Shown here piece by piece: positions 24,242 through 64,000 of a stretch of DNA of 64,000 nt. The DNA comes from Symbiotaphrina buchneri (Eukaryota > Ascomycota > Symbiotaphrinales > Symbiotaphrinaceae): assembly GCA_001599915.1 (NCBI GenBank), contig BCIG01000027.1:1-64000 (forward strand), in the 5' to 3' direction. Positions within the stretch are counted from its first letter, which is position 1; each line of letters starts with the position of its first letter. The notes under the pieces were generated by a model. It saw nothing but the letters and a program-made list of their open reading frames with translations, did no database searches and was not told the origin of the DNA. The translations under genes and the position numbers were made by a program.

Positions 24242-25127
24242 CTACCGGAGGTATTTCCTCTCCAAATCACGCATCTCCTCATCGCCCTGAAGCTTAAAAA
24301 CATCCTTCACGGGCGCAATATCCTCCTCCACTCCCGCGATCCCACCCTCCACCAAAACCCTCCTAAAAACACGTCTCATCCCCGCCACACACGCACGCAC
24401 CGCATGATTCCCACAAATAATCAACCCGACCTTCTCCAGGCGCGCCACCTCCTCAAAGCTCAGCTGTGGATAACTCGTGGGCACAATCACCAACGGTGCC
24501 TCTCCCTTCCACTCGCTACAAAAAGCCAGAAACTCCTCCGGCGTCTTCTGCTTACTATGCACCAGCACCGCATCCGCGCCGGCCCGCACATACGCCTCCG
24601 CCCTTTGCAGCGCCTCCTGCAGCCCCAGGCCCGCAATCAGCGCCTCCGTCCTTGCAACAACCAACATTTCCCCTGCGCGCGCTTTCGCCGCGGCAATCTT
24701 CCCGCTAAACTCCTCGATCTCCACGAGCGCCTGCCTTCCTCCCAGTCTCAGGGAACTATCCTTCGGGAACGTCTTATCCTCCAGCACGACCGCGGCGGCG
24801 CCCGCAGCCGCGTATTGCGGCACCGCGTACGCGACGTTAACCGCGTTGCCGTACCCGGTGTCCAGGTCGGCGATGAGCGGCAGCGAGGGCACGGCGTCGG
24901 CCATCGCGCGCGTGGTGCAGAGGTGCATGCTCATGGGCAGGATGCTGGCGTCTGGCACGCAGTAAGAGGCGGACAGCTCGAAGCCGCTCACCCAGCATGC
25001 GGAGAAACCGGCTTCCGAGACGAGTTTGGCGCCGAGCGCGTTGTGCGCGGACATGGCGATCGCGGGCTTGGTGGGGTTGACGGGGGGTGCGCAGAAGGGC
25101 GCTTGTGGTGGTGGCGCGGGAGGCCAT
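24242..25127 (-). CDS. ICL/PEP mutase superfamily enzyme, closest to phosphonopyruvate hydrolase
   Basis: From the certain in-frame ATG at 25054 the protein has 270 residues and begins MSAHNALGAKLVSEAGF. The features are VSGFELSASYCVPDASIL, DLDTGYGNAVNV (metal-binding Asp), the mobile gating loop EDKTFPKDSSLRLGGRQ, VVARTEALIAGLGLQEAL, VLVHSKQKTPEEF, VIVPTSYPQLS, CGNHAVRACV and the final VKDVFKLQGDEEMRDLE. As I recall, phosphonopyruvate hydrolase has EDKTFPKDTS here while PEP mutase has Asn at the penultimate position, and this protein has Ser-Ser, so hydrolase-like chemistry (C-P or C-C cleavage of a 2-oxoacid) is favoured. Upstream, ATG 25127 opens MASRATTTSALLRTP in a different frame. Removing one C of the six-C run at 25082-25087 would join it smoothly, so either that ATG is not used or there is an indel (see findings). 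Confidence 0.88.
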
Positions 25128-30436: not shown

Positions 30437-31421
30437 TCTTCGTGGGTGGATGCGCGATACTGTGAGGTGGACTTCAGTTCAGGCCTGTACCGTCATCTGG
30501 TGATCATCAAGATCACTGACGAATGAGGATAGTTGGAGATGTTGGAGAGCTTGAAGTTGGGGAAGCCCCACATTGGCTTAATAATTCAGCCGTTGCTTTT
30601 AGGAGCGGATCAACTGGGCGTTGTAGGTGAGACCTCCTCTGGTGCTCGGGATAAGATAATTGAAGCAAAAACTCCTGAAGGTGTCCTCCAATGGGATTGT
30701 GATCTTTCACGTTTTCTATTCTTAGCCAGGTCCGCATTCCCCGGTGTCGATATCCCACTGTGCAGGGACGATGCCAAGCACCAGGGTCTTTCCGGGATTA
30801 TTATTGGTGACCCCGCATTTTGAGGTTACAGGCATGCTGAGAAGGGTGAAGACCCGGAGGATGGAATCAGAAGCCACAGCCTTCCTTGAAGCCCTAGGAG
30901 GGAACCGCCAAAGTGCGGTCACAGGCTCCGCTTGCAAAGACTATTCACAGAGTTTTCAACCTGTTGTCGCATCAAGACGTTCACGATAAGCGGGCCTCTG
31001 TCCAACGACTTGAATATTTCTGCCAGCCTCAAACGAGCTCCGATTGACGCCTTAAGCGTTGCAAGTTCAAACGAAGTGAATCAGAACCATTGGTTGGAAT
31101 TGTATGCGGCGTTCTCACCCATCACCGTTGGAGTCGGGGTTAGAGAATCACCTTGAGCGGTAATGAATTGTTACATGGAACCGTTCTATGGCACACTCCG
31201 GACTTTACACCTAAGTCCGTCGGACCGCTGATGCACCGCCGTGCAACACAAACACCTTCATTCACTCCAGTTACTCCTCTTTCCTTTCCCTCTTTCCATC
31301 TTCCTCATCATCTCCTCTCTTCTCACTACCATTCAATCTCATTACGAACCTCACATCAGCAATCCTCCCACCCACCTCACAAATCAAGCCTCATCAATCC
31401 AATCCCATCCGACACAACGCC
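30437..31421. other. Divergent intergenic region between two SDR genes
   Basis: About 985 bp holding the promoters of both reductases; a pyrimidine-rich stretch at 31260-31420 probably belongs to the 5' leader of the plus-strand SDR. No other gene recognised. Confidence 0.5.
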
Positions 31422-32204
31422 ATGTCACCTCAAACCATCGCGCTCATCACCGGCGCCTCTCAAGGCATCGGCTTCGAAGTCGCCAAAGCCCTCGCAAGCA
31501 AGCACAGCGACTGGATTATCCTGCTAGGCAGCCGCTCGACCGATAAAGGCGCCAAAGCCGCGTCGGAGATCAAATCCGGCAACAACACCACCATCGAAGT
31601 GCTCCCTCTCGACGTCACCTCCGACAGCTCCATCGCGTCCGCCGTCGAGACTGTCACGGACAAATACGGCCACCTGGACATCCTAATCAACAACGCCGGC
31701 ATCGGGATCGACTCAGCCACCGGCCCGAACGGGAAAGAAATGAACCCCAACGCCCGGCACGGAGCCAGCCTGCGCGAGCTGTACATGGAGACATTCAACG
31801 TCAACGTCTTCGGCGCCGCCGCCGTGACCGACGCCTTCACGCCGCTCCTCTCCAAATCGAGCGGAGTGCCACGCATCGTGTTTGTGTCTTCGCACGTCGG
31901 CAGCCTGACGCTGCGCTCCGACCCGGCGAATGAGTGGTACGCGCGCGCACACGCCGCCCGTTACCCCATCTACCGCTCCAGCAAGGCCGCATTGAACATG
32001 TTGACGCTCCACTATGCGGCCCTGCATGAGCAGGAGGGTTGGAAGGTCAATGCCAGCTGCCCGAATCTGACGGCGACGCCGTTCACGGGTGGGATGGGCC
32101 GCCCGGCGAGTGAGTCCGCGGGGAATATTGTGCGTCTGGCGGAGCTGGGGAAGGAGGGCGAGTCGGGCACGTATTCAGATGAGAAGGGCATTGTGCCGTG
32201 GTAG
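31422..32204 (+). CDS. Classical short-chain dehydrogenase/reductase
   Basis: Intronless, 260 residues, ATG 31422. It has the cofactor motif IALITGASQGIGFEVAKAL, the structural LDILINNAGIG, the catalytic Ser region RIVFVSSHVGSLTL and the active-site YPIYRSSKAALNMLT with Tyr-x3-Ser-x-Lys spacing. The Tyr is followed by RSSK, so Tyr and Lys are correctly spaced. An Arg/Ser-rich stretch after the second strand (SRSTDKGAKAA) suggests NADPH preference. It resembles carbonyl-reductase-like fungal SDRs acting on small ketones; I cannot name the substrate. Confidence 0.93.
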   Translation: MSPQTIALITGASQGIGFEVAKALASKHSDWIILLGSRSTDKGAKAASEIKSGNNTTIEVLPLDVTSDSSIASAVETVTDKYGHLDILINNAGIGIDSATGPNGKEMNPNARHGASLRELYMETFNVNVFGAAAVTDAFTPLLSKSSGVPRIVFVSSHVGSLTLRSDPANEWYARAHAARYPIYRSSKAALNMLTLHYAALHEQEGWKVNASCPNLTATPFTGGMGRPASESAGNIVRLAELGKEGESGTYSDEKGIVPW

Positions 32205-33303
32205 ACGGTGAAGGGAGATGATGACTTTGCTTTGAGCAGAAGGACTGGGAGACGGTGTGGGTGCTTGAGCCATGGAAGGTCGCGCATTCAAAAGCGACGA
32301 GGATGTTGCAGCATCTGCCTGCTTTAGATGAAGTCATGAGACAGCATCAACTGCCGCCTCGTTCATGCTGGAATCAATTAGCGGTCATGAAATGAAACTT
32401 GCTTCCACCGAGCGACAATTCCTGGTTTAGTCAGCTCTCTAAACCAAGCATCTCTAAACCATGAATTTCAGTGAATCCCATTGCTACAACAGCCTGTCAC
32501 CTTTTTCTTCTGGTCAGATTATCTGGGTGCATGTTGAAGCTACCGACTATCCCGTTGTTGACCTCTTCAAGTCGAGGCTAACCGGTCCCTGTTCCTAGAA
32601 GCAGCCAGGATCCTGTCGCTGCAAACCGAAACCCACTGTATAATCCGGATATAAGCGGCCCCCGTCACCGCCGTACAAAACACTCATATTCTAACGACCT
32701 TCTTCAGGGCAGACACGAGCAGTAGTGGGGTAGATAATAATGCAGGCGAATTATCTCCGGCTTTCTAATCCTCCCCACTCTCGCAGTCCTTTATTCCCGG
32801 CCCCTCTCTCCCAGCATCCACCGGCATCCGCACCGTGCAAGCCCTAAAACGACGTCTAGAACGCCCGTGGTTGCTTTGCTACCTTCCGCAGTTCTGCTCC
32901 GCTGCATGTTCGGCCGCCGATGGCCTATCAGCACGCGGCTATTACTCGAAGAGTGGGCGATGCCCACATTACTGGCTTCGCTGGATGGCGCCATGGCCCG
33001 TGTGCCCCTGCGCGAGGCGAGCTTTGCTGCTTTGGCGGCGGCGGTGTCCGCTGATAAGGACTGCAAGCGCGTTATCGGTGGTTGGTTGCTTAAGAGCGAG
33101 GGCGATTGACAACTGACCATTGAGCACCCTTGTTGATGATATTCTTATTCGTGGGATTCGCTCTTCGACTTCATTGCTGCTTTCTTTTCGAAAACTATAG
33201 CTTGAGGAAGGGAGGTTTAAGGCGCCGGTATACCCTTCATTGGAGCCTCTACTGTCCTTCCTTATCACCAACGACACGCACCTCCAGCAAAACCACCACC
33301 ACA
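32205..33303. other. Intergenic, upstream of CYP53-like gene
   Basis: About 1.1 kb. A plus-strand frame at about 32850-33109 (MFGRRWPISTRLLLEEW and onward) has coding-like third positions but no recognisable domain, so I do not call it a gene. Confidence 0.45.
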
Positions 33304-35057
33304 ATGGGCATGCTCGACGCCGTCACGCAGCGGCTACCGCTGCTCTCGCCCTCCTTCTGGGCCATCATCAGCGTGCTGGGCTTAATTGTATGCACCAGCC
33401 CTTACAACATGACAAACCATTACATTAAACCCAGCATACTAACCTCCAATCCGCAGGCCTACTACGCGATCCCGTACTACAGCGACAAATACAACCTGCG
33501 GCGGTTCCCAAGCGCCTCTCCGATCGCAGGGATGTCGTACTTCTGGATGCTGATCTGCGCACGCAAGCACGCCGTGTCGCTCAACGTGCACGCGAAACAC
33601 GCAGCGCTGGGGGACTTCGTGCGTGTGTCGCCGGACCACGTCAGCGTCGCGCACCCGGACAGCATCCGCGACATCCTGGGCCACGGCAACGGCTTCACCA
33701 AGAGCGACTTCTACTACGCCTTCGACAACATCGAGCAGGGCATCTTCACGACGCGCGACCGCAACAAGCATTCCCGCAAGCGGAAGTTCGTCGCGCATGT
33801 TTTTAGCCCCAAGGCCATGGTCGACTTTGAGCCGTTCATTACGAATGCCCTGCTTGTTATGGGACGGCAGATGGAGAGTCTGGCGGATACGGGACGCGCC
33901 GGGGAGTATGTGAGTCTGACGGAGAGCGATGGGGAGATTAAACGCCGGGCGAGGAAGGGCGAGGCTGCGATTGATGCTGCCACGTGGTTGGCGTTTTTGG
34001 CCTTTGATATCATCGGTGACCTGGTATGTCTCCTCTCCTCTCCATCCCGTGCGGCACCGCAAGCACTACATCATCACAAGCTGTCCGTCCTACTAACAGC
34101 ACAACCACTCAGGCCTTCGGCGAACCCTTCGGCTTCACACTTGCCGGGCACGACACGAACAACGGGATCAAAAAGCTGCGGGACCGGGGGGAATGGTGCT
34201 GCACAGTGGGGCAAATGCCATGGATCAAGACCTGGACGCCGTACTTCTACTTCGACACCTTCTTCGTGTACGGGCTGCAAGCCGCCCAAGCACTCGGGCG
34301 CATCGGCATCGCCGCCGTCGAGAAACGCAAGCGCTCTGCCACCATCGACCCGAACCGCAAGGACATCCTCTACTACCTCCTCGCGGCCAAAGACCCGGAC
34401 ACGGGCGGCCCGCTGCCGGACCGCGAGCTCAAGGCCGAGGCCCTGACGCAGCTGATTGCCGGCAGCGACACTACAGGCAACACCCTCACGCACATCACGG
34501 ACATGCTGTGCCGGCACTCCGCGGCGCTGCAGCGCCTGCGCGAAGAGCTGGATGCCGCGTTCCCCGCCCCGCTGCCGCCGGACTGGGTGGCGCCGTTCGC
34601 GGCGTGCAAGGACCTGCAGTACACGCAGGGGGTCATCTACGAGACGCTGCGGCTGCGCACGACGGTCTCCGTGGGGCTGCCGCGCGTCGTCGCAAAAGGC
34701 GGCGCGACCGTGTGCGGGCGCTTCTTCGAGGAGGGCACCGTGCTCAGCACGCCCACGTATACGGTACACCGGGACGCGCGCGTGTGGGGCGCGGACGCAG
34801 AGGAGTTCCGCCCTGAGCGCTGGGTCGGCGATGCGGCAAGATTTGAGCTCGAGAAACACTTCTTGGGATTCAGCTATGGCCCGCGTGCGTGCATTGGACG
34901 CAATGTGGCGTTTATGGAGCTGAAGAAGACGCTGGCGACGCTGTTTAGGAGGTTTGAGTATAGACTGGTAGACCCCGAGAAGGAGACGTCTATTAGAGAG
35001 GGGTTCCATTTGAAGTGTCAGGAGTTGCCGGTGTTTGTGTCCAAGAGGAAGGAGTGA
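33304..35057 (+). CDS. Cytochrome P450, CYP53 (benzoate 4-hydroxylase)-like
   Basis: Three exons, 33304-33387, 33457-34023 and 34113-35057, giving 531 residues. An N-terminal membrane helix (SPSFWAIISVLGLIAYYAI) anchors it in the ER. The I-helix is LIAGSDTTGNTLTH, the K-helix is YETLRLR, the PERF-type motif is FRPERW and the heme loop is FSYGPRACIGRN with the axial Cys. The RKDILYYLLAAKDPDTGGPL segment and the general spacing resemble benzoate para-hydroxylases of the CYP53 family, which turn benzoate into 4-hydroxybenzoate for ring cleavage or detoxify plant phenolics. The assignment is from pattern memory; a paralogue with another aromatic substrate is quite possible. A monocarboxylate-type MFS carrier lies tail to tail next to it. 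Confidence 0.88.
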
Positions 35058-35288
35058 GGCGTGCGGGTGGGACGGGAAGAGATGCTGGTGCAGGATGGAT
35101 GGGGTGTGTATATACATGCGCATAGTTGAAAAACCATAGAAGGTCTGGAAGGATCGTGGAACGCCCGCGAGCCATACCAGAGTCTTGCATGAGCGAGAGC
35201 ATTGTTCACCTGACCTGCTGTCAATGCATAGATATGGTATCTAAGCTCGTAAAAATTTCAAGCCACGTTCGTTCCATGAACCCGTGTT

Positions 35289-36886
35289 CTAGACGATTGC
35301 AAGCCTCCACCACTTGCTTGCAGTCCTCCACTTGTGCAGAAATCTCTGCCAACCGCTCAATGCTTGCAGATCAGGCTGGACCGCCACCACATCGGCCACC
35401 CCTTCCTGCCCCCTTCGTTCCAGCCTCTCCCGGTCATCCTTACCAATCTTCCAAACCCTCAACAGTCCCGCACAAGCCGCCGCCCCCAAGAACAGCAACC
35501 CGCTCCAAAGCTGGGGATACAGGTACGCATTCTCGTTCTGCGGCCGCCTCAACATCAGCGCAATCGGCTCCGAGAACGTCGTCGGCAGCACGGTGCTGAT
35601 CCAGACCAAGCTCAGACAACTGGGCAAGTCCTTAAGCCCCACGACCTCGACGCTCAGCGGCGAAATAACAACCCAGAACGTGCCGCCGACCATACCGCCC
35701 ACGAGCGCAAACAGCATCGTCGGGCCCAGCGTCGTGCTGGGGATCCAGATCGCGAACACCGACAAGGAAGTGAGGAACGTAGCAACGAACGCGACGTTAA
35801 TCCGGCCTAGGAAATCGCTCGTGTACCCAATAACCGGGCGGCCAATCGCCATGCCCACGCACGAGACGGCATTCAGCAGCGCGCCCTGCGCCGCAGAGAA
35901 GCCACGGAACGTTGCAAAGTCCGCGAGCGAGAACAGCATCGCCACATACGCCAGCTCGCTGAGGAACGCCCACAGCAGCAGCAAACAGACTTCATAGCGG
36001 CGCAGCAGCGCGAGATCAAACGCGTCCTGGTTCGGCCGGACATGCGAGTTGCGGTCGCGGATCAGCAGCGTCGCGAGCGCGCAGACGGCGAAGACGGCGA
36101 TCGCGAGCACGCGGAACGCCCATGGCACGCCGTACCGCGCGATGATGGCGCGCACGGCCAGCGAGAAGGCGATCCCGCCGACCCCCACGCCGGAGGAGGT
36201 GATGCTGTTGGCGAGACTGCGCCGCCGGCTGAACCATTGGCTTACGATCCCCGCGGAACCGCTGTAGAGGAACCCGATGCCGGCGCCGTACAGGATTCCT
36301 TGCGTAAGAATTAGGTGCCAGATCCGGTGCGAGAAGGACGCGGTGATGAAGGCTGTGGTGAGAAGGAGGTTGCCGATCGCCATGACGGTGCGGGTGCTGG
36401 TCAGCCGGAGACTGAGTGTGACGAGGGGCCCGACGATGCCCGAGGTTGAGATCGAGAGCCCCCCGATGAAGGCGTATGCGAGAGGCGTCGCGCCGGGGTA
36501 AGTGTTGTGCGCGAGGTAGTCGGCGAGGAAGACGCCGTAGGACTGGAATAGATATTTGTAGGGTCAGGCTCTTGCTTCGGCTTGTTGAGGAGGATGAGGC
36601 GTGTTTCGAGGAAGGGAATAGGACTTACCACCGTCACGCCCCAAGTACAAGCCGTGACCCAGAAGACGCAGATGACGTTGACCCAGCCATATCCGCCCTC
36701 GGGGACTTTACTCAGCGGATCCTCTTCTTCGACGGCGGTTGGCGGTGCAAGCCCCTGGGGGTCCATCTGACGAAGCTCAATATCCGCCTCATCGTCGCTA
36801 CCTCCTCGTTCACTGCCGGCTGGGGGACGTCTCTCCTGTGTCTCGGCCCCATCCCTCGACGGAGGTGGTTGGTCGACTGCTTCCAT
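35289..36886 (-). CDS. MFS monocarboxylate transporter-like (MCT family)
   Basis: Two exons, 36886-36629 and 36542-35289, giving 503 residues. A hydrophilic N-terminus of about 65 residues is followed by VPEGGYGWVNVICVFW, the conserved DxGxGW-type entry of MCT proteins, then SYGVFLADYL, GIGFLYSGSAGIVSQWFSRR, NSITSSGVGVGGIAFSL, and a second half with AIGRPVIGYTSDFLGRINVA. Twelve membrane spans can be counted. The family moves monocarboxylates (pyruvate, lactate, aromatic acids) with protons across the plasma membrane. Its position beside a CYP53-like P450, with about 230 bp between the two stop codons, fits uptake of benzoate-like acids, though this is inference. Confidence 0.9.
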
Positions 36887-39569: not shown

Positions 39570-41530
<1,961 letters not shown>

Positions 41531-50154: not shown

Positions 50155-51096
50155 ATGTCTTTCAAAAACATTGCCCTCGCCGGGGCCTCGGGCGCCATGG
50201 GCGCCCACATCCTTACCGCGCTTTTAGACACTTACCCCGCGTCCGCGATCACCATTCTGACCCGCGATGGCTCTACACAGGAATACCCCGCCGGTGTGAA
50301 GGTCATCAAGCTGCCTTCCTATGACGACGAGACCGCCGCGAAATCCGCGCTGGCCGGCGTCGACGTGCTGATCTCGGCGCTCAACGGCGCTCCCGCGATC
50401 AAATGTGAGCCGGTCCTCGTGCGCGCGAGCATTGCAGCAGGCGTCAAGCGCTTCATGCCGAGCGAGTTCACCATGGACGTGCTGGACCCGACATACCTCG
50501 CCGTGGTCGGCGAGACCGGCACGCAGAAATCCAAGGGTCGTATTGCATGGGCCCGAGAGCTGCAGAAGATCGCCGCCGAGGGGCAAATCGAGTACATGAC
50601 GATAGTGCCGGCCGCTTTTATTGATTTCTGCCTCAGCACGGGATTCTGGGGGATTGATATTCCGAGGAAGAGGGCGGTGGTGTATACGGGTGCTGTGGAT
50701 GGCGAGGGGAAGGGCACTGGCTGCTCGCTGAAGTTCGTGGCGGAGTGTTTGGTGGCGACGTTGAAGATGCCTGAAGAGACGAAGAATAAGAGGATTAGGA
50801 TTGCGGAGGTGACGTATACGCCGGCGGAGATTGTTAAGACTGTTGAGGAGGTTACGGGCCAGAAGTTTGAGGTGAAAGAAGAGCCGTTGGAGGGTTTGGA
50901 GAAGGCAGAGAAGGAGTTGATCGCGAAGGGTGACGATGGGAGTGCGTATGGGAAGTTTGTGGTCAGGATGAACTTTGCTGGGACGGATGCGGCGAGATTT
51001 GAGGACGGCTTGAAGTGGGGAGAGGGACTGGTGAAGAGAAGGACATTGAAGCAGATCGTGGAGGACGTTGTCAAAGAGCTTGAGGTTAAGGAATGA
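50155..51096 (+). CDS. NmrA-like / isoflavone-reductase-like NAD(P)-binding protein
   Basis: Intronless, 313 residues. It has the N-terminal cofactor motif IALAGASGAMGAHILTALL, an ITILTRDGS strand-2 region, VDVLISALNG, AGVKRFMPSEFTMDV, the Lys-containing KSKGRIAWARELQKIA and PAAFIDFCLSTGFWGIDIP. This is the PCBER/isoflavone reductase branch of atypical SDRs (NmrA-like fold, PF05368/PF13460 type). Members are either NADPH-dependent reductases of phenolic ethers or redox-sensing regulators. The glycine motif GASGAMG is intact, so cofactor binding is expected. The conserved Lys in KGRIAW could be catalytic. The protein is probably cytosolic; the substrate is unknown. Confidence 0.92.
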   Translation: MSFKNIALAGASGAMGAHILTALLDTYPASAITILTRDGSTQEYPAGVKVIKLPSYDDETAAKSALAGVDVLISALNGAPAIKCEPVLVRASIAAGVKRFMPSEFTMDVLDPTYLAVVGETGTQKSKGRIAWARELQKIAAEGQIEYMTIVPAAFIDFCLSTGFWGIDIPRKRAVVYTGAVDGEGKGTGCSLKFVAECLVATLKMPEETKNKRIRIAEVTYTPAEIVKTVEEVTGQKFEVKEEPLEGLEKAEKELIAKGDDGSAYGKFVVRMNFAGTDAARFEDGLKWGEGLVKRRTLKQIVEDVVKELEVKE

Positions 51097-52663: not shown

Positions 52664-55600
52664 ATGCAGTTGAAACGAGTGTTGATCGCAAATCGGGGCG
52701 AGATAGCTGTGCGCCTCATCCGATCATGCAAAAAGGTGGAGATCCAATGTCGGTTTTAAATGCACACATCTGCCTTGCTGATCTTGTCGGTAGCTGAATG
52801 TGACTGCTATTGCAATATATACCGAAGAAGATGGTGCGACCTTGCCCCCTGCTGCTTCATGCATCTGTTGCTTAGCGCGGCCATGTAGGCGATTCGATGC
52901 ACGTCCGACAGGCAGATGAAGCTTATGCGCTGGAGGGTAAGGGTTCGGGGGGTTACTTGGACATGTAAGCCAAGGATCGATCAATGCGTCGTCTGGTAGC
53001 TGATAAATTACCCGTAGAGAGAACATCGTCAAGATCTGTCAGAGCAAGAGCGTGCAAGCCGTGCTTCCTGGTTACGGTACACCACTGAAGCTTTCATGAT
53101 CTGACTGAGCTTGACTCACCAAACTAGGTTTCCTGAGTGAGAATACTGAGTTTGCGGTAAAACTCGCTGAAGCGGGAATCCTCTTCGTAGGGCCGACGCC
53201 AGAGATATTGACGGAATTCGGCCTCAAACATTTAGCGCGGGAGTTGGCCGTCAAGGCAAATGTGCCTATAGTGCCCGGTACAGGCATGATAGAAGATGTC
53301 GAGACAGCAACTGAAGCGGCGGGAAAACTTGGCTTCCCGGTGAGTGCCATGGCAGCCTGAAATCACAGATTGCTCATGCGAGGCAGGTCATGGTGAAAGC
53401 TACAGCCGGAGGAGGTGGAATGGGCTTGCAAGTCTGCCACAACGTAGCCGAGTTGAAGGATGCTGTGCTTGCGGTAAAGAGCCGCGGAGAAGCCCTGTTC
53501 AAGATTGGTGGCATGTTTCTGGAAAAGTATATTCGAAACGGCCGACACATCGAAGCCCAAATCTTCGGCAACGGCAAAGGCGAAGTGATCTTCCTAGGTG
53601 AGCGAGAATGCTCTGTCCAACGTCGGCACCAAAAGATCCTCGAGGAGACTCCTAGTCCATTCGTGCTCAAGAACCCCTGGTTGCGCGTACACATCCAGGA
53701 GGCAGCCGTCTCGCTTGGGAAATTGGTGAACTACAAGTCTGCAGGCACCGTAGAGTTCCTGGTGGACGATGAGACCGGAAGTTTCTATTTCCTCGAGATG
53801 AATACGCGCTTGCAGGTCGAGCACGGCGTGACGGAGCTCTGCTATAATGTCGATCTTGTGGATATGATGCTGCTGCAGGCAGAACAGGAGCTGCAGGGAA
53901 ATGGTGGATTGTCGAGGGAGCAGTTGGAGCAGTTCGGAAGAGACGGTCCGGTCGGTCATGCGATAGAGGTCCGGGTGTATGCCGAGAACCCGGCAAAGGA
54001 TTATCAACCTGCACCTGGCCTATTACAGAATGTGGAGTTCCCGAGCGGTGAGAGTATTCGGATTGATACGTGGATCGAGACAGGCACCACAGTCTCGCCG
54101 TCCTTCGGTAAGTGATTACGAATGTAGGTATCTCTTGAACGCACTTTTGATAATGGTTCGCAGATCCTCTACTTGCGAAGTTGATAGTATATGCCGAGGA
54201 TAGACCGTCGGCACTGAAGAGAATGACTGATGCGCTGTCAAAGACGGTTATACAAGGTAAACCGAAGAATAGAGTTGCAGTTTTCTCCTACTGACAAGCA
54301 AAGGGCCACCGACAAATCTAGAGTTTCTTACAGAGATATGCCAATCGCACGGTAGGCAGTATCCGGATTTCTAACTTGTAGCAACTGACATTAACTAGAT
54401 GTTCTCACTGGCTACACGACTACCAACATGCTTTCAGCTCGTTTCTCTTATGTACCTTGTGCGCTAGAATTTATAGAACCTGGTGCTTACACCACGGTCC
54501 AGGACTGGCCGGGGAGGTTGAATATCCCCAACGGCGTTCCCGTTTCTGGTCCCATGGATGACGTTTCATCCCGGAGTAAGAAACCACCAATATCTCTCTG
54601 AGCAGGAACTCCCACTGACGTGTTCCCGAAGTCGCCAATTTAATCGTGGGTAATCCTATCGGCATGGAAGGTCTCGAGATCACCTTCATTGGCCCAACTA
54701 TTCTATTCCACTCACCGGCTACCATCGCGCTTTGTGGAGGTACCTTCTCATTCGTGATTGGTGACAAACCAGCTGAACTGTGGAAACGGCACTATGTCCC
54801 TGCTGGCACGGAGGTCAAGATAGGGGAGGCTAGCAGTGGCGCGAGGGCTTATCTAGCTGTTCGAGGAGGATTGCCTAGTGTGTGAGTGTTCCTGCTATCG
54901 ATGGGGCCACAGTTCAAGGACTAATCATTGGAAGCGCCAAATACTTGGGCTCGAAAAGTACTACTCCCGCGTTGTCGTGGGGTGGGCATCAAGTAAGTAT
55001 AACAATCCTATTACGACAGCTTTATGCAATATATCGAGGCTGAATGTCATCAGGGCCGACCATTCCGTACTGGCGATTATTTATCTATGTCTAAATCCGC
55101 GAGCCTGGAAGCTCCAAACTTGCCCCCCCTATCAGCTCCCTTCCCAGTTTATCCCAAAACTGGACAATGCCCCTTGCATCTACGCTCTACCTGGCCCTTA
55201 CTATGATACGCAGTTCCTCGCTCCAGAAGGCCAAGCTCAGCTGTTCTCTACTGAGTGGAAAGTCTCTTTCAATTCGAATCGTGCAGGCATTCGGCTCGAC
55301 GGTCCGCCGCCGAAATGGGGTAGAAAGACCGGTGGAGAGGGAGGGAGCCATCCCAGTAACATGCTGGGGTATGGATATCCACTAGGGGGAATGAGCTTCA
55401 CAGGAGATGCTGGAGTGGTGTTCCCTGCCGACGGGGCCAACCAAAGCGGATTCATCTGTACACATACAATCCTAAGGTGCGATATGTGGCGCCTGGGACA
55501 GTTGCGGCCAGGGGAAACGCTGAGGTTTACGGCGGTGAGTTGGGAAGATGCAGTTAGTCTAGAGAAGAGGATGACAGCATACTTGGAGGAAGTCCAGAGG

Positions 55601-57090
55601 CATGTCACTTCATCTGCGGGAGGACAATTGGGCAAAACCTTGGATTGGTCGATTGATCCCCATCCAGCCAATGACGGTATTTTGTTCTCGCGGCCGGCCG
55701 ATGCTAAAGACCCGGACATACTGCAATTCACCATCCGGCAAGCGGGTGAGCGGGGTATACTGTGTGAATACGGTGCTCAACACTTCGACTTGAATGGACG
55801 AGCGAGAGTCAAGCAGCTAGGGGACATCGTTGAGAAATCACCTCCAATCGGGTTCCAGCCCATCGGCACGCCCGAGAATTGTTCGATATTGTTCTATTTC
55901 GATCCGCTCCAGATAGACCAGTCCGCCGCTATCTCAACGATATTACGCCTCGAACAAACACTCTCGTCTCCTCGCTATGCCAGGATCCCAACTCGCATCT
56001 TTCACCTGCCGCTCCTGTTCGATGCTGAGGAGATTCACGAGGCGGCACGTCGGTACATGCAAGCGCAGCGGCCGTACGCCAGCTACCTGCCCGATAACGT
56101 GGACTTCATCCGGCGGAGCAACGGACTTGCAACCCGGGAGGACGTGAAGAATGCGTTTGTCGAAACGCCGTGTATCATCAACGCGGTGGGGTGGATGATG
56201 GGCCTACCTATTTATATCCAGGTGGATCCGCGCAAACGGTTGAGCGTGCCGAAGTATAATCCGAGTAGAACATACACGCCAGGTGGTGCGACGGGGACGG
56301 GCGGGAACACGTCTTCGATCTACCCAAACGATGCGCCGGGCGGATATGTGTAAGTCTCACACCTTTGACATGAGTCGGTTTGCCGTGGGGTGCTGATTTG
56401 CAAAGGCTGTGGGGTATGACGTTGCCAGGATGCCTGTGGGATACCTTCGGCAGGAATCCCGGCTACAGTCCGTCCAAGCCATGGCTGTTCGAACCATTCG
56501 ATCAGATCATATTCCACTCCGTGACACGTGAGGCGTACGATGCTATTGTGAGGAAATTCCATCTGGGCTTGTACGAGATTGAGATTGAACATACCGAGTT
56601 CGACATGGGCGCCTATAACAGGCTGGTGGAAGGCACAAGGAACGAGGTCGAGGAGATGTTGAAGGTGCAGGAGCGATGCACCGCCGTCGAGCTGGAGAAG
56701 GAACAGGAGCTACTCAAGAAGTGGGAGGAAGAGAAGAAGCAGAGTGCGACGAAGAAGCCTGTCATTGACATACAAGCCATCAACGGTCCGTGTAGAGCGT
56801 CCCTATCCTCCGTGAAGAGTTCAGCTTACAGAGTCACAGATTCGAGATACATCAAGCTCACCTCGACAATGGTTGCCAGCCTCTGGCAGATGCCGGTCAA
56901 GGTCGGTGATGTGGTTCAGCCTGGTAGCGTGCTAGCCGTGCTGGAAGCAATGAAGATGGAAATCTCTATCCGTACACCATCTTCTGTCACTGGGGATGTC
57001 AAAGTCCAGAATATCCTGAAGGAGCCGGGTGATTTACTAGAAGCAGGAGATGTGATAATGCTGCTTGAGCCTATGGAATTGGCGCAGTGA
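52664..57090 (+). CDS. Stand-alone urea-carboxylase-type biotin-dependent carboxylase
   Basis: Many short introns; start ATG 52664 (MQLKRVLIANRGEIAVRLIR), stop 57090, about 1,230 residues. The order is: biotin carboxylase (PGYGFLSENTEFAVKLAE, ATP-grasp loop MVKATAGGGGMGLQV, FLEMNTRLQVEHGVTE, where HGVTE is typical of urea carboxylases); AHS2/KipA-like part (EPGAYTTVQDWPGRLNIP, PVSGPMDD, GGEGGSHPSN); AHS1/KipI-like part (ILCEYGAQHFDLNGRARV); and a C-terminal biotinyl domain with biotin Lys in LEAMKMEISIR. Urea carboxylase makes allophanate from urea, ATP and bicarbonate. The fungal DUR1,2 enzyme fuses it to an allophanate hydrolase, and no such amidase is present here or nearby. Where I recall DGPSLGGF in the carboxyltransferase part, this protein has DGANQSGF, so the acceptor may not be urea. 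Confidence 0.9.
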
Positions 57091-57249
57091 TCGTCTTTAT
57101 TCAATATGCATACACATGAAGAAGGGGCTACTATGGGAGCACAACGGTGTGCGAAAACATGGGTCTGGCTTTACATCCTAGTCTTTTGCACTCCAGTAGA
57201 TACTGTTGCCTATCGTCTGGAGACATTATATAGATATTCCAACCATGGC

Positions 57250-59113
57250 TCATTTCACCAAGACTCGGACCCCTTTCGATCCCCACTTGACCTGCGGGAT
57301 GTGGAACTCGCGAGCAACATCCACATCCTCCCTCGTCGTGTTATACAGCTGAAAGTCGAACCGGCGGAACACCGTAGCAATGGTAACGTAAAGCTCTGCA
57401 AACGCAAGGCTGCAGGTGTAACTCAGCCTCAGACCCCGAGAGAAGAACCCCACTATGAACGGAAAAGTGATAATGAGACTTACTTGATTCCAGTGCATGC
57501 TCTTGTGCCCCGGCTGAAGGGCACCCAGTATTTCCGGAGCTCGACCGCGTTAGGTTGTAGCCAGCGTTCTGGGATGAAGGTCATAGGCTCAGGGAATACG
57601 TCGGGGTTGTTGTGCATATCCATGGGGTTCATACCCACAGGCGTCTATGATAAAGGAGTCAGTGCGGTCCAGTGCTGAAGCTGGATGGTTGGTCGTTCTT
57701 ACGCCAGCAGGGATGACCCAGTCGCGGAAACGAAGTGGTTCGTTTGGTGAGACTCGCGGCATGCGACTGACTACCCCTTGGGAGATGCTGTAGCGAACGT
57801 CAGCGAGCCGGTACATGAGACCTGAATTAGATATTGTCTCACCGAAGTCCTTCAGTGATCACAGCCGACTGTGACTATATCAGATCAATTGGTCGCCCAA
57901 TAGCGAAGAGATGACACACCAAGTAAGGCAGCTCCTCCAACTGCTGCCACGAAGCGATGCCAAGTGGGTCAGGAATGGCATCTTCAAGTTCCTTCTTCAA
58001 CCTGGCCAGGCACTGTGGCCTGTAAAGAAGGTGGAACGTAATGACAGATAGAGCGTTCCCTGTCGTCTCGTTACCTGCCACGACAAACAATATACCTTCT
58101 TCCGTCATGCGGTCAACGGTTTTCTCCTGGGGAGGCATGTCCGAGCTAAACATCTCATAAAACACAGTCGGGTTGGTCTTGCTCTCGCGCTCTTCCATCG
58201 AACTGGTCTTTGTTCGCATGACGATTTCTTCGACGACCTGCGTTGTTAGTTTGTGTCTAGTTTGCGGGTTGTTTGCTGAAAAGGGCTTACATGGTGGAAC
58301 TCAACGAGTTTATGAAATTGTGGCATCACCAGCGCTCGTACAAACACGGGCAAGCGTTTTGCAAACCTGGGGAACCATGGATAATGGTTCACAAAATGTA
58401 TCAGCCGGACATTCTTCAAGAACTGGTCGAACCATTCTTCGTTGAAGTCCGGCGCGTCCAAGAAGCCCAGCGTCCTCGACATGGTATACTCAGTGACCAC
58501 ATCAGTGGTAAATGCTCGGTAAGCCGTGCCAATGGATAGGGGTTTGCCGGTCCCTTTATACTCTTCTATCCGTCTGCATAGTTTCTCCACGGTCTTCCGG
58601 ATAGTGTCTTGCTCTAAGCGGAGGATCATCTGCCGTGAGAAATAAGGCGCGATGGCTCCTCGACGTGCTTTGTGCAGATCATGTCGTACTGTATTTGCTG
58701 AGGAGGCCGGATGGCCGAACTGCTGCACGTGCCAACCGTACTTGTCGAATTTTCTCGCGTTATAGAGTTGGTCAAAGTATGTTGGATCATTGATGTGAAG
58801 CTCATATGGTGAGATGCGAACGATAGGACCTGTTCAGTTGGCTGAGTAGTGGGCTTGGGGATCCATCAAGTAGGTCAGATGGCCTACCATATTTCTTGTG
58901 CATCTCCTGTACTTTCCATGGATGTTTGCCTTTCTTGATGACGGCGTAGTAGAATTCATGCCATAATGTCAAAGCTGCCAGCTTTGGGCCCGGGAACTTA
59001 GCAATGGGGCTGAAGTAAAGGCGATAGACAGCACCGCATATCAACCAGAAGACAACAGCGATGGCCAAGATGGCCGCTGGCTCCAGTAGGAGATGGAACA
59101 TGATCGAGTACAC
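57250..59113 (-). CDS. Cytochrome P450 of the putative metabolite cluster
   Basis: Several exons from ATG 59113 ([22 protein letters not shown] membrane anchor, then [20 protein letters not shown] proline-rich hinge). It continues with [53 protein letters not shown]-helix [18 protein letters not shown] (Glu in the acid position), K-helix ITEGLR, FIPERW and the heme loop [19 protein letters not shown], the last formed across an intron (AA joined to CCTTGCG). The C-terminus reads [17 protein letters not shown] and ends at 57250. The FSRGTRxCxGINLAxAELY pattern is common in fungal P450s of secondary-metabolite clusters. It is convergent with the carboxylase gene, only about 160 bp apart, and divergent in direction from the synthetase. 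Confidence 0.9.
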
Positions 59114-59816
59114 GGTGAGAGTTCTCGCGAGGGTCTACCTAGAAGGATCTAAGGTTCGTAGACTCGAATACGATGCGGGAAATGAAGGGAGGACAAAGAG
59201 GGATCGGAATGGCTCCCAAAGTATGGGATTCTTGGTCTTGCTCCTTTTCTGCTTTCTCTTCTAATCATGGATCATCCCGATGCTAAGGGTCGTACATGTG
59301 TATCAGCAATCGTTGTCTGCTTTCATCGGGTAACGGCATTCCTCCACCTGCATGTCTCAGACATATGGCCATCCCGCTGCGGTGCTTCCAATTGTTGTTA
59401 CACGATGTAAGGTTGTGCTAGTCGAGGCGTGCTGCGAGACAGACAAACCATAGGTTGATATTTAATCGGGCTCTTGCTCTACCCCCTCATGGAATTTGCA
59501 TATCTTCAGCTGCAACCCTTGGCTTTATTTGTGCAGTGCCTTGGCAACTATATTTTTCGATCCATGACGTGCTGATCCACCAGTCCCGGTGAGAATTGTA
59601 GTAGGATTTGGTAATGGTTGACGATCCTCAGCAATTGGAGCAGAGTCTGCGAAGTCCGAGACATTACAGAATACACAGCATGAAGAAATCATCACCCTTG
59701 GATAAGCCGTCCCTCTAAGAATGCATATGGTCCACAGGAGGAAAAGCAAACAAACGTAGCAGATAATCCATGTGAAAGGGTGCCGTCTATTAATGTCGAC
59801 TAGCACGGAGATGCAA
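59114..59816. other. Intergenic between P450 and methyltransferase
   Basis: About 700 bp, promoter side of the P450 and 3' side of the methyltransferase. No gene recognised. Confidence 0.5.
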
Positions 59817-60720
59817 TCAGTCTTCCCTGTAGACCGCAAACTTCAACCTCCTGCCATCCGGATCACCCCACCCGCCTCCCCTGGTGAACCCAGCCAGCGG
59901 CATCTCCTCCAACTGAGCTTCTACCCTCCACTGCGTGCCAGTCTCCATTGCAATGATCCTCCACACGCCCTCGAACGTCTCGATGCTATGCTTATGTATG
60001 GTCCCCTGCAGCGGGCCCATCTTAAATGCCCCTCCACGAACGTGGCCAAATTGTTGTCCTAGAATCAAAGATCCTTTGCACGGCTTCAGCAATTGGACCA
60101 ACCGTTTTGCCGCATCGATCTGGCCCTGGTAATCAAACATATGCAGAAATGAGCCGGCGTAGATGATGTCCATTTGCTCCTTGAGCTCTTGCAGGGGAGA
60201 CGAAGTGTCGAAGAGATCTGCAGCGATAAATCTCCCGTCGAACTTGTCCCGGTCACGGAATAGATCGTAGCCAGCTTCCATCAAATTGGCGTGAAGATCG
60301 GTCCCGTAGAGATGCGCTGTAGGAGCACCGTCGAATGCCAGCTTTCGAAGGTCTTGGCCGAAGCAACAGCCGACGTCGAGCAGCTTCTCCCCTCTCTTTA
60401 CACGGGAGAGCACTTCTGCGTAGCAGGAGGAGTTCCCAATGCCAAGCTGAAGGAACGTTGCTCCGCCTATACATGGGAATGGAGGAACATTCCACGCTTG
60501 CATGCGCTGTTGATTGTGAATGGTTTTGAGCAGGACGCGAAACTTCACACAGGAGACTTACGACTTTCGCCACATGTCCCTCTACTTCCTCAGACGGAAC
60601 CCCAGCGTATTCTTCCAGCAGTTTTCGGAAAGCCGGTGGAATATCGATCGTCTCTTTGAACCATGGCACAGAAGTATCACGCACACCGAGGCCGTCGCTG
60701 GCGGTCAGCTTCTTCGACAT
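59817..60720 (-). CDS. SAM-dependent methyltransferase, AusD/AdrK-like
   Basis: Two exons, 60720-60562 and 60506-59817 (donor GTAAGT, acceptor CAACAG), giving 282 residues. The N-terminus has IPPAFRKLLEEYAGVPSEEV and the splice joins VAKV to RMQAWNVPPFPCIGG, a pattern typical of the fungal meroterpenoid methyltransferases (AusD, AdrK, Trt5 relatives). The SAM site is LLDVGCCFGQDLRKLAFDGA, followed by YGTDLHANLMEAGYDLFRDR, FIAADLFD, DIIYAGSFLHMFDYQGQ and LLKPCKGSLILGQQFG. Known members methylate carboxyl groups or oxygens of cluster intermediates in the cytosol. It lies head to head with the NRPS-like synthetase, so the two probably share a promoter region. Confidence 0.9.
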
Positions 60721-61832
60721 TTTCACCGGGGTAAAGAACTGGGAGTGAATCATTATACGGACTCAGAATTTGGGTCGTGGTGGCGAATTTTTAAGGCTAC
60801 GTGGAATGAATTTCTGTTGGCAAGTCTCGCTCTACAGAGCTCTTCATATTTGGCAACTTCCATAGATTCGTCCATACGACTCCTTAATGATTAGCTGCAG
60901 TACCTAATTGAGAATGTAGCCACTTTCACCATGGTGAAAATACATGGACGATTCCGGTCCATTAGTTGCAACGTTCCTTGACTAGGTCGACCAGGGTGAG
61001 AATGAGAACCAGGTTACAAAGCGGGATTATACCGGAGGGATAGGATGACGTGCATAGACAGTACCCTTGGTGGGCGGATGCGACGTTGTACATTGCGTAC
61101 GCAGCCAGTCATTACTGTAGGCTCACGTTACATTTTCTGGAGGATTTAAGACTGTCTCAGGTCCTCGGGATGGTTTTGGGCCACATATGGAAATTTCGGA
61201 CCCAATTGCTCCTCAGCTGAGCAGGGCTTGACGCAAATTCTGCTTTAAGAGGATGGCCGCTGCATTGCTTGTGTTCCTGTCTTACCTACATCGTTACACA
61301 ATCTCCCACTTACCCAGTTACCTGCCGGCGTCCCTGGATGCTCCTCTGCAAATGATGCTCAAAGGGCAGGAACCCGACGGCGATCGAACCTGCTCCGCAC
61401 ATGTATTACGGCGACTTTGCAATTGAGCTGGAGCTAAAGGTCATACGCTGTCTAACATCGAACAGATTCTCTTGGCCAGCGAGATTCTCCCAATTGATGC
61501 CCTACTTGGAATAAATCATGCAGACATTTGTTGGGCTCAAAGACAATGCATTTCAGCTCTCGTACATCCACAGTGCATATATTGGGGGAATTTGAAACAG
61601 CAACTGAGCTCAGCCAATGGAACAACAGACCCTGCCGTCATGGGGGGACTTTGGTATAATATTTACTAATCATCCTAATCTTGGCCCCCCAATGTAGTAT
61701 TAACGCACGTAATGCTGACATGCATATACAATATCCCGTTTGCCACTTCAGCAATGTGGCCACAAGCATGAATAAAACATGGATTTTCCAAAGCACTCTA
61801 CACCAATTTTCCAGCGCACTCCCTCGTCCAGT
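60721..61832. promoter_or_regulatory. Divergent promoter region, methyltransferase / NRPS-like synthetase
   Basis: About 1.1 kb separates the two start codons, which point outward. Open frames inside are short and featureless. No particular regulator site was identified by eye. Confidence 0.5.
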
Positions 61833-64000
61833 ATGACTCTGTCAACTCCTCGCTCAGAACTCTCCGTCACCTACGAAGAACGTATTCAACTAGCGTCCTC
61901 TGCCTCAAACCTCTATCATCTTCTAAGAGATGCAGCAGAGACTACAAGCGCTGGAATCACAATCTATGCTCCAGGAAGCAGCTATAGCAGGGGCCACGCC
62001 GATATCAGACACTGCACTTACTATGACCTGTTCCACCGAGCCAGGGCCTATGCTGATACGATCCACCAGATCGAGGATCTGTCGGCGGAGACCAAGGTGC
62101 TGCTTCATCTCAATGACCATACTCAGAATATAGAGTGGTTCTGGGGTACAGTGCTTGCAGGCTATGTTCCCGTTATATCAGCCCCCTTTGTCAACGACGT
62201 GGATCAGCGGAGGAAGCATATTGTGCATATTAATTCTCTGTTGGATAGCCCCGTCATCATCACAACAAAGGAGCTCGTCTCAGAATTTGCTGGTGTAGAA
62301 GGACTGGGCATATGGACCGTGGAAGCCCTCGCGGAGAGGAAGAAGACCAGAACCAGCACAGTGAATATCGCCAGTCAGAAACAACCAGACGATCTAGCGG
62401 TGCTCATGTTGACCTCTGGAAGCACCGGCAACGCAAAAGCGGTCTGTCTACGTCACGGGCAGATCATCGCCGCTCTGGACGGCAAGAGTAAATTCCACAA
62501 CACCGGCAAAGACGACGTCTTCTTCAACTGGATCGGGCTGGACCACGTCGCCAACCTCTGCGAAACCCATCTCCACGCTATGCGTCTAGGCGCTGAACAG
62601 ATCCACCTGCAGGCTTCAGATCTGCTGTCGGACCCTCTGTCGTTTATTCGACTGCTACATAAGCATCGTGTCACTTATACTTTTGCGCCCAATTTCTTCT
62701 TAGCATCGTTGGTTAGATGCTTAGACAAGGACGACGGTTTACAGGGGCTGGACTTGTCGTCGCTTAAAGCATTGATATCAGGAGGCGAGTCGAACGTCGT
62801 CGAGACTTGCAATGCCTTGACGAAACACCTGCGATGCCATCACGCTATTGCTGGTTTCATTCGGCCCGGCTTTGGAATGACGGAGACATGTGCGGGTTCC
62901 ATCTATAGCAAATCATGTCCAACTTATGACATTGCACAAAAACTCGAATTCGCATCCTTGGGCACTTGTATACCCGGTATCAAGATGCGAGTGGTAACCG
63001 ACGACGGGAACGAGGCCAGCCTCAACGAAGTGGGCAATCTGCAGGTCAGGGGCCCGATCGTTTTTACTGAGTACTTCAATAACCCTGACGGGACGTATGA
63101 GTCCTTCTCTAATGGGTGGTTCATCACGGGCGATCGTGCCTTTATCGACGGCGGAGGAAACCTGAACCTGGCCGGTCGGACGAAAGAAAGCGTCATCATC
63201 AATGGCGTCAAGCATTATCCACAAGCGCTGGAAACAGCACTGGAAGAAGCCGGTATTCCAGGCATAGTGCCTTCATACATTGCCGCCTTCCCACATCGGC
63301 CCAAAGACTCAGCAACTGAGGCCATCTGCGTTGTATATAATCCGGCTTACGCAAGGGACGATTCCAAGACCCGGATAGAAACAAATGACGCGATTGCCAG
63401 GACAGCTGGCATGGTGCTGGGGGTTAAGCCGCACGAAATCATTCCTCTAGAAAAGTCGTTCCTGCAGAAGTCTTCTCTGGGCAAATTGTCCAGAGCCAAG
63501 ATACGCAAAGCGTATGAAAATGGTGAATACACCGAACAGCGCGAGCTCAACATGGCGGCTACCAAGGACTATCGGCAGTGCCATCTCACACACCCGTCCA
63601 CATTGACAGAGGAACGGATATTAGCCGTCATGTGCGAGCACTTCGAGCTGCCCGCCGATGAAGTGGGCATCGATACCAGTCTGTTCCATCTCGGCGTCAC
63701 ATCAATCGAGCTCATCCAGTTCAAAACCCTCGTCCAGCAGCGGCTTCATCTCGACAAGGAGATCCCTCTCATCGTCGTCCTAACCAACCCCACCATCCAA
63801 GCCATGGCGGCCGCCATCGACCGCATGGCCGTCTCCGCGCCTCAGCCCTACGACCCCGTCGTCACGCTGCGATCCAGCGGGCCACGGACGCCGCTCTGGC
63901 TCGTGCATCCAGGCGTGGGCGAAGTGCTGGTCTTCCTCAACCTCAGCAACCACCTGACAGAGCGGCCGGTATACGCGCTTCGGGCGCGGGGCTTCAACCC
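61833..64000 (+). CDS. NRPS-like synthetase, A-T-TE type (truncated by window end)
   Basis: Continuous open frame from ATG 61833 (MTLSTPRSELSVTYEER) to the window end, 722 codons and still open. There is no condensation domain. The adenylation domain has core motifs LMLTSGSTGNAKAV (A3), FGMTETCAGS (A5), NGWFITGDRAFIDGGG (A7), LAGRTKESVIINGVKHYPQ (A8) and SSLGKLSRAKIRKAY (A10). A thiolation domain with LGVTSIELIQFK (phosphopantetheine Ser) follows near residue 620. A thioesterase begins PLWLVHPGVGEVLVFLNLSN and continues past the edge. This A-T-TE layout is that of fungal enzymes which activate aromatic alpha-keto acids and dimerise them to quinones, furanones or related lactones (AtrA, TdiA, MicA, ApvA types). 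The keto acid used cannot be predicted here. Confidence 0.93.
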   Translation, partial: MTLSTPRSELSVTYEERIQLASSASNLYHLLRDAAETTSAGITIYAPGSSYSRGHADIRHCTYYDLFHRARAYADTIHQIEDLSAETKVLLHLNDHTQNIEWFWGTVLAGYVPVISAPFVNDVDQRRKHIVHINSLLDSPVIITTKELVSEFAGVEGLGIWTVEALAERKKTRTSTVNIASQKQPDDLAVLMLTSGSTGNAKAVCLRHGQIIAALDGKSKFHNTGKDDVFFNWIGLDHVANLCETHLHAMRLGAEQIHLQASDLLSDPLSFIRLLHKHRVTYTFAPNFFLASLVRCLDKDDGLQGLDLSSLKALISGGESNVVETCNALTKHLRCHHAIAGFIRPGFGMTETCAGSIYSKSCPTYDIAQKLEFASLGTCIPGIKMRVVTDDGNEASLNEVGNLQVRGPIVFTEYFNNPDGTYESFSNGWFITGDRAFIDGGGNLNLAGRTKESVIINGVKHYPQALETALEEAGIPGIVPSYIAAFPHRPKDSATEAICVVYNPAYARDDSKTRIETNDAIARTAGMVLGVKPHEIIPLEKSFLQKSSLGKLSRAKIRKAYENGEYTEQRELNMAATKDYRQCHLTHPSTLTEERILAVMCEHFELPADEVGIDTSLFHLGVTSIELIQFKTLVQQRLHLDKEIPLIVVLTNPTIQAMAAAIDRMAVSAPQPYDPVVTLRSSGPRTPLWLVHPGVGEVLVFLNLSNHLTERPVYALRARGFN

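What the first reader, a model, noticed from the sequence alone, without database searches (positions are those of the whole stretch)
52664..64000. Candidate metabolite cluster pairing an A-T-TE synthetase with a urea-carboxylase-type enzyme
Four genes in 11 kb: biotin-dependent carboxylase, P450, AusD/AdrK-like methyltransferase and NRPS-like A-T-TE synthetase. The last three are standard cluster parts. The carboxylase is not, and I know of no characterised A-T-TE pathway that uses a urea-carboxylase homologue. It could N-carboxylate a urea, guanidine or amide group of the product, or act on a small nitrogen precursor. The cluster continues beyond the window.
Basis: partly seen in the sequence, partly recalled or inferred. 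Interest (0 to 1): 0.82.

Follow-up and report, generated by a model that had tools for sequence, protein, structure and literature searches.

The report
Fungal polyporic-acid-type metabolite gene cluster
A fungal gene cluster that probably makes a yellow pulvinic-acid-like pigment ends next to a carboxylase gene which does not look like a true urea carboxylase and is most likely just a neighbour, not a partner.

Summary
A FAD monooxygenase and an ABCG transporter follow to the right. The synthetase is a non-reducing A-T-TE enzyme, 53% identical to the polyporic acid synthetase AcyN, with the same residue at the substrate-sensing motif. The methyltransferase sits in an AusD-like subclade whose two named members come from lichen genera with pulvinic acid derivatives; three of its eight relatives have contig lengths equal to those of close synthetase relatives. 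I infer polyporic acid, ring opening, then methyl esterification to a vulpinic-acid-like product. The carboxylase pairing is weak. It has Ser where urea enzymes have Asn and guanidine enzymes Asp, and lacks an Asp that the known urea enzyme carries. Its clade (20 listed relatives; 8 of 13 named are black yeasts) shows no contig overlap with listed synthetases. Its frame looks broken in the assembly. The genome's other copy lies back to back with a lamB gene. Verdict: a real, interesting cluster; the carboxylase is probably a bystander.

The parts
61779..64000 (+). A-T-TE (non-reducing NRPS-like) synthetase; ORF continues to 64679 outside the window, 967 aa from the first ATG
   Evidence: AMP-binding, PP-binding, Thioesterase; nearest PDB McyG, 292 bits; AcyN 53%
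60754..61778 (.). shared upstream region between the divergent methyltransferase and synthetase
   Evidence: gene models
59817..60753 (-). AusD-like SAM methyltransferase, 293 aa, exons 60562-60753 and 59817-60506, open throughout
57250..59101 (-). cytochrome P450, 500 aa, 7 exons, open throughout
52664..57091 (+). biotin-dependent carboxylase of the fungal stand-alone 'urea carboxylase' family, Ser1330 / no Asp1584 subclade; probably not part of the cluster
55085..55160 (+). stretch within which the carboxylase reading frame changes by one in the assembly

Best explanation
The right part (57250 to about 69 kb) is a cluster built on a polyporic-acid-type A-T-TE synthetase. Proposed mechanism (each chemical step is inferred, none shown): the A domain activates phenylpyruvate and loads it on the T domain; the TE domain condenses two units to polyporic acid; the FAD monooxygenase and/or the P450 opens the quinone ring oxidatively to a pulvinic acid; the AusD-like methyltransferase esterifies the carboxyl group to a vulpinic-acid-like methyl ester; the ABCG transporter exports it. 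The carboxylase at 52664-57091 is a diverged paralogue of the fungal LamA-type carboxylase. Its diagnostic residues fit neither a urea nor a guanidine carboxylase, it stands at the edge, converges on the P450, and is most likely a bystander. My estimates: phenylpyruvate/polyporic type about 0.75; methyltransferase in the cluster about 0.9; pulvinate-ester product about 0.5; carboxylase bystander or relic about 0.8.
For: Domains A, T, TE in order. Nearest solved structure McyG A-PCP, 292 bits (that McyG takes phenylpropanoid acids is recalled). AcyN, the polyporic acid synthetase of Ascocoryne, is 53% identical (P0086; PMC9047271 passages). The residue before SGGE, taken as code position 5 (mapping by a recalled GrsA motif), is Ile in the query and in AcyN; Ile/Val goes with phenylpyruvate, Asn with 4-hydroxyphenylpyruvate (PMC10316625 passages). 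MT clade of nine including the window gene, support 0.995 in a midpoint-rooted FastTree: Candelaria pacifica, Chrysothrix sp. and six unnamed. Chrysothrix is coloured by pulvinic acid derivatives (PMC6949994 passage); Candelaria is listed for pulvinic acid and calycin (PMC10418359 table passage). 3 of those 8 relatives (P0242, P0243, P0277) have contig lengths 11421, 53335 and 14720, equal to those of synthetase hits P0003, P0002 and P0010; expected by chance 0.14 matches, P(>=3) about 0.0003. Characterised AusD-like enzymes perform methyl esterification (PMC8851701 passage); vulpinic acid is the methyl ester of pulvinic acid (PMC7017160 abstract start in listing). FMO is MAK1/CtdE/PhqK-like (the name PhqK for 6pvf is recalled). 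On the carboxylase.
Against: No product, expression or gene-order data. A-T-TE relatives occur widely in lichen and other fungi, many not known to me for pulvinates, so the synthetase alone does not point to pulvinate. The pulvinate step rests on two named genera and a family-level inference for the methyltransferase. PMC8851701 also says that in the phomoidride cluster no methyl esterification seems needed of such an enzyme. Other lichen methyltransferases, including second copies from Candelaria (P0265) and Chrysothrix (P0307), fall outside the subclade. The MT contigs of Candelaria and Chrysothrix in the subclade (23766 and 346743 bases) match none of the 119 synthetase contig lengths compared. 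Neither oxygenase is tied to ring opening by a close characterised relative. The carboxylase stop lies only 158 bases from the P450 stop.
Confidence: 0.5

Rival explanations
1. The carboxylase is a working member of the pathway: it N-carboxylates a nitrogen-bearing intermediate or precursor, or a lactam-like group.
For: Adjacent, 158 bases from the P450 stop. Biotin motif EAMKME and biotin-carboxylase motifs kept (motifs recalled). The residues leave its substrate open.
Against: None of 119 carboxylase contig lengths compared equals any of the 119 synthetase or 120 methyltransferase lengths; this is weak, since only the best 120 of each search are listed and split multi-exon genes may fall below the length filter. 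Frame apparently broken. The sections and passages I saw on the acy and alf pathways describe no carboxylase.
Confidence: 0.12
2. The carboxylase is a decaying or dead copy: the frame change is a real lesion in the genome, and the gene is a relic without function. (Lowered from 0.25 to 0.22 on re-checking, because one unusual GC-AG intron cannot be excluded.)
For: Frame A and frame B each continue the homology but no enumerated GT-AG intron joins them without losing a conserved segment. The downstream half is less conserved against the C9 copy (36%) than the upstream half (54%).
Against: 630 further codons stay open across one GT-AG intron, with 55-56% identity to Capronia P0121 where aligned. 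One GC-AG option of 37 bases keeps the main motifs. The stretch contains a homopolymer, where assembly errors are common. The half-to-half drop is milder against P0121: 62-70% to 55-56%.
Confidence: 0.22
3. The cluster makes an O-methylated terphenylquinone or another polyporic-acid derivative without ring opening, so no pulvinate.
For: Known ascomycete polyporic acid pathways end in ascocorynin (one P450 hydroxylation) or allantofuranone (reductive dehydration, O-methylation, dioxygenase). A P450 is present here.
Against: The methyltransferase is AusD-like, a methyl-esterifying family; the alf O-methyltransferase is 433 aa with another best hit. Both named members of the MT subclade are from pulvinate genera.
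Confidence: 0.3

Closest known systems
AcyN / ascocorynin locus of Ascocoryne sarcoides (PMC9047271, passages)
   Same: A-T-TE synthetase, 53% identical, same Ile before SGGE; TE motif GYSYG against GYSFG here
   Different: no monooxygenase within 50 genes of acyN, its P450 is unlinked; its co-expressed neighbours are a transcription factor and a DAHP synthase; no methyltransferase among the neighbours named
alf cluster for allantofuranone in Allantophomopsis (PMC12105029, abstract and sections 4, 6, 7)
   Same: polyporic acid synthetase plus a methyltransferase and an oxygenase
   Different: alf has a dehydrogenase, an extradiol-type dioxygenase and a 433-aa O-methyltransferase; here an AusD-like methyltransferase, a P450 and a FAD monooxygenase
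AusD/AdrK/Trt5 methyltransferases
   Same: same family; relatives P0253 and P0262 are named ausD and trt5 by their sources
   Different: own subclade of nine that includes two lichen fungi, apart from P0253 and P0262; AusD itself was not in hand
LamA/LamB lactam locus of Aspergillus nidulans (layout recalled; lamA and lamB named as lactam genes in PMC8016842)
   Same: the genome's second carboxylase on C9 lies back to back with a LamB/YcsF gene; it and the window gene fall in one clade of 101 of 123 sequences, support 0.986
   Different: no LamB found on C27, Ser instead of Asn at 1330, only 54%/36% identity to the C9 copy
Urea amidolyase / urea carboxylase, Kluyveromyces lactis (3va7, 5i8i)
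   Same: domain layout; 298 bits for the C-terminal piece
   Different: K. lactis has Asn1330 and Asp1584; the window protein has Ser and no Asp

Membership tests
Non-reducing NRPS-like (A-T-TE) alpha-keto-acid synthetase | AMP-binding, PP-binding and thioesterase domains in one protein, no condensation domain | tested here: met
Polyporic acid synthetase | Ile/Val at A-domain code position 5 | tested here: met
   Ile, as in AcyN; rule from PMC10316625 passages; position mapped through the SGGE motif by recall of GrsA, not by an alignment to GrsA
Polyporic acid synthetase | makes polyporic acid from phenylpyruvate | not testable with these tools
   needs an enzyme assay
AusD-like methyl-esterifying methyltransferase | sequence family | tested here: met
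   by relatives named ausD/trt5 and by tree; generic methyltransferase domains only in Pfam
AusD-like methyl-esterifying methyltransferase | methyl esterification of a carboxyl group | not testable with these tools
   stated for characterised members in PMC8851701 (passage)
Urea carboxylase | Asn at K. lactis position 1330 (Asn in urea, Asp in guanidine carboxylases) | tested here: not met
   Ser
Urea carboxylase | Asp at K. lactis position 1584 (present in K. lactis and in 9 of 120 listed relatives, among them algae and a bacterium; that urea enzymes need it is my inference) | tested here: not met
Urea carboxylase | TIGR02712 score over the curated cut-off 1303.85 | tested here: inconclusive
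   only the C-terminal 630-aa piece was scored: 446 bits
Guanidine carboxylase | Asp at both 1330 and 1584 (PMC11410670 passage) | tested here: not met
LamA (lactam utilisation) | adjacent divergent LamB/YcsF gene | tested here: not met
   PF03746 found on C9 and C7 only, none on C27
LamA (lactam utilisation) | placement with the lam-locus copy of the same genome | tested here: not met
   C27 groups with P0121-P0140 (support 1.0), the C9 copy with another 12 sequences (support 1.0) (C-terminal part only)
Vulpinic/pulvinic acid cluster | product and ring-opening oxygenase | not testable with these tools
   no title or abstract start listed names such a cluster to compare with

The most novel reading that the evidence does not exclude
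The Ser1330 / no-Asp1584 carboxylases are a separate substrate class of biotin-dependent N-carboxylases, neither urea nor guanidine enzymes, and this fungus has recruited one into a pulvinate cluster to act on an amide- or lactam-bearing intermediate, giving a nitrogen-containing pulvinate.
Probability: 0.08. Interest if true: 0.75.

Novelty: new variant of a known kind. Interest (0 to 1): 0.45.

Why it matters
Pulvinic acid pigments such as vulpinic acid are among the best-known lichen substances (recalled). No title or abstract start listed names a gene cluster for them; this locus and its three apparent counterparts give a concrete candidate. Separately, 111 of the 120 listed 'urea carboxylase' relatives lack the Asp at 1584 that the K. 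lactis urea enzyme carries and that is demanded of guanidine carboxylases. The usual name of the fungal stand-alone family may therefore be wrong for many of its members.

Tried and rejected
Urea or guanidine carboxylase: disfavoured on residues 1330 and 1584. A LamB partner near C27: none found. Urea use as the need for this enzyme: the genome has a urease-alpha gene. Rescue of the carboxylase frame by another intron: 22 GT-AG or GC-AG options inside the stretch and 12 GT-AG options with donors further upstream were listed. Of the GT-AG ones none keeps both the QGR..GD and the LP..PGP segments; GT-AG 54993-55111 keeps the frame but deletes QGR..GD, which 19 of 20 relatives have (the 20th, P0139, gave no match to the pattern). 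One GC-AG option, 55099-55135, 37 bases, keeps both but is very short with an unusual donor; I hold it unlikely, not excluded. Contig length was the stand-in: 119 of 120 synthetase hits (P0086 has no contig), 120 of 120 methyltransferase hits, 119 of 120 carboxylase hits (P0215, 9372 bases, was left out; by eye it equals no other). Paper searches on lactam utilisation listed no primary lam paper; passages of PMC3484666 were irrelevant (an author name); passages of PMC12711211 mention pulvinic acid only among metabolites; PMC9473517 passages gave only a homology list for AusD; PMC7819959 passages were too general. L016 (102-112 kb) was fetched and not studied. AlphaFold and fold searches were not used.
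Full report
I read the right flank to 102 kb and modelled the genes by hand from splice sites and homology.

Observation. All four genes are there. The carboxylase runs 52664-57091 (+) in 13 exons; the P450 59101-57250 (-), 500 aa; the methyltransferase 60753-59817 (-), 293 aa; the synthetase from 61779 (+), open to 64679. Pfam finds CPSase_L_D2, Biotin_carb_C, CT_A_B, CT_C_D and Biotin_lipoyl on the carboxylase pieces scanned; p450; methyltransferase domains; and AMP-binding, PP-binding and Thioesterase. Beyond the window follow a FAD monooxygenase (about 66460-64815, -; nearest solved structures 7cp6 MAK1-like, 7kpq CtdE, 6pvf), an ABCG-like half-transporter (about 69106-67047, -) and a HODM-like gene (about 71.7-70.3 kb, -).

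The synthetase. The nearest solved structure is McyG, 292 bits. Of 2422 proteins found, 120 are listed; the first 20 are 57-63% identical and come from unnamed contigs and from fungi such as Caeruleum, Thelocarpon, Sclerophora and Pseudocyphellaria. AcyN, a shown polyporic acid synthetase, is 53% identical. The residue before SGGE is Ile in the query and in AcyN; in the 120 listed relatives it is Ile 89, Ala 11, Leu 6, Val 4, Thr 2, Pro 1, no match 7. By the published rule (PMC10316625 passages), Ile or Val goes with phenylpyruvate, i.e. polyporic acid, and Asn with 4-hydroxyphenylpyruvate. I mapped that code position through the motif by recall of GrsA. The TE motif is GYSFG; of the 120 relatives 78 have GYSFG and 42 GYSYG.

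The methyltransferase. Of 161 proteins found, 120 are listed. In a midpoint-rooted FastTree of these 120 plus the window gene, the window gene sits in a clade of nine with support 0.995: P0241 (Candelaria pacifica), P0246 (Chrysothrix sp.), and the unnamed P0242, P0243, P0244, P0245, P0257 and P0277. Second copies from the same or allied genera (P0265 Candelaria, P0307 Chrysothrix, P0259 Candelina) and other lichen proteins fall outside it. Chrysothrix owes its colour to pulvinic acid derivatives (PMC6949994 passage), and Candelaria is listed for pulvinic acid and calycin (PMC10418359 table passage). P0242, P0243 and P0277 lie on contigs of 11421, 53335 and 14720 bases. These lengths equal those of synthetase hits P0003, P0002 and P0010. 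In a control that jitters the lengths by up to 20%, 0.14 such matches are expected and three or more have a probability of about 0.0003. This is indirect evidence for linkage, since the contigs could not be fetched. Characterised AusD-like enzymes make methyl esters, though one cluster with such a gene needs none (PMC8851701 passage), and vulpinic acid is the methyl ester of pulvinic acid (PMC7017160 abstract start in the listing). The chain phenylpyruvate, polyporic acid, pulvinic acid, methyl ester is my inference. None of its steps is shown. In particular, neither oxygenase is tied to ring opening by a close characterised relative.

The carboxylase. A search of the own genome found two PF02626 loci, this one and one on C9. 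The C9 gene is open throughout in my model (1239 aa) and lies back to back with a LamB/YcsF gene. That is the arrangement I recall for the lamA/lamB lactam locus of Aspergillus nidulans; PMC8016842 names lamA and lamB as lactam catabolism genes (passage). The A. nidulans sequence used as 'urea carboxylase' by Strope and colleagues (P38095; PMC3073912 passages) is, by recall, LamA. One listed relative, P0177, carries both the LamB and the carboxylase domains. The window copy is 54% identical to the C9 copy upstream of the frame break and 36% downstream.

The published rule demands Asp at K. lactis 1584 of guanidine carboxylases and separates them from urea carboxylases by Asp at 1330 (PMC11410670 passage), with Asn in urea carboxylases (PMC12186494 passage). 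The K. lactis urea amidolyase has Asn1330 and Asp1584, so I take Asp1584 to be shared by both kinds; this last point is inference. The window carboxylase has Ser and no Asp; the C9 copy has Asn and no Asp. Of the 120 listed relatives 58 are Asn/no Asp, 52 Ser/no Asp, 9 Asn/Asp and 1 unreadable at 1330 and without Asp. The nine with Asp are three named algae, one named bacterium, one unnamed protein with an amidase domain and four more unnamed. In a FastTree of the C-terminal part the window gene forms a clade with P0121-P0140, support 1.0, all 20 of them Ser/no Asp. Thirteen of the 20 carry names: Capronia (2), Cyphellophora (2), Exophiala, Knufia, Cladophialophora and Phialophora, all black yeasts by recall; one filed under Elasticomyces; and Apodospora, Sarocladium, Microdochium and Saxophila. 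This negative is weak: only the best 120 hits of each search are listed, and multi-exon genes may be split below the length filter.

Frame break. Frame A carries QGRPFRTGDYLSM and frame B takes over before IPKLDN...LPGPYYD. 19 of 20 relatives show one continuous stretch there of about 47-54 residues. No enumerated GT-AG intron joins the frames without loss of conserved residues; one short GC-AG intron (37 bases) would keep the main motifs but shorten the stretch. The long open stretch downstream argues against an old dead gene. Reads or cDNA would decide.

Verdict. A polyporic-acid-type cluster with an AusD-like methyltransferase, P450, FAD monooxygenase and exporter is well supported as a cluster core (synthetase plus methyltransferase) and moderately supported as a pulvinate-ester pathway; that the P450, FAD monooxygenase and transporter belong to it rests on adjacency. 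No title or abstract start listed (open-licence library only; full texts not read beyond the passages cited) names a cluster for pulvinates.

Noticed in passing
P0121-P0240 (one search list), K. lactis positions 1330 and 1584: 111 of 120 listed 'urea carboxylase' relatives lack Asp at 1584, including all fungal ones that carry a name and no amidase domain; the family name in fungi may be wrong for many members.
   Followed up: partly
L021 (C9:668001-678000): Second carboxylase copy back to back with a LamB/YcsF gene, a likely lactam-utilisation locus.
   Followed up: yes
G000 C7:804308-805032 (L023, L024): A second LamB/YcsF gene; no PF02626 gene was found on C7, so its partner, if any, is unknown.
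   Followed up: no
C27:70300-71700 (L014/L015): HODM_asu-like (haem-dependent oxidative N-demethylase alpha-subunit-like) gene just beyond the ABC transporter; membership in the cluster unknown.
   Followed up: no
50164-51096 (+): NmrA-like NAD(P)-binding protein, left of the carboxylase.
   Followed up: no
22435-25243 (-): CoA-transferase family III frame next to a PEP-mutase/isocitrate-lyase-like frame, a possible small acyl-CoA catabolic pair.
   Followed up: no
39827-41527 (+): Glycosyl hydrolase family 15 with starch-binding CBM20, i.e. a glucoamylase.
   Followed up: no
31215-36563: Short-chain dehydrogenase, P450 and MFS transporter frames in one stretch, with no core biosynthetic enzyme among the frames scanned there.
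   Followed up: no
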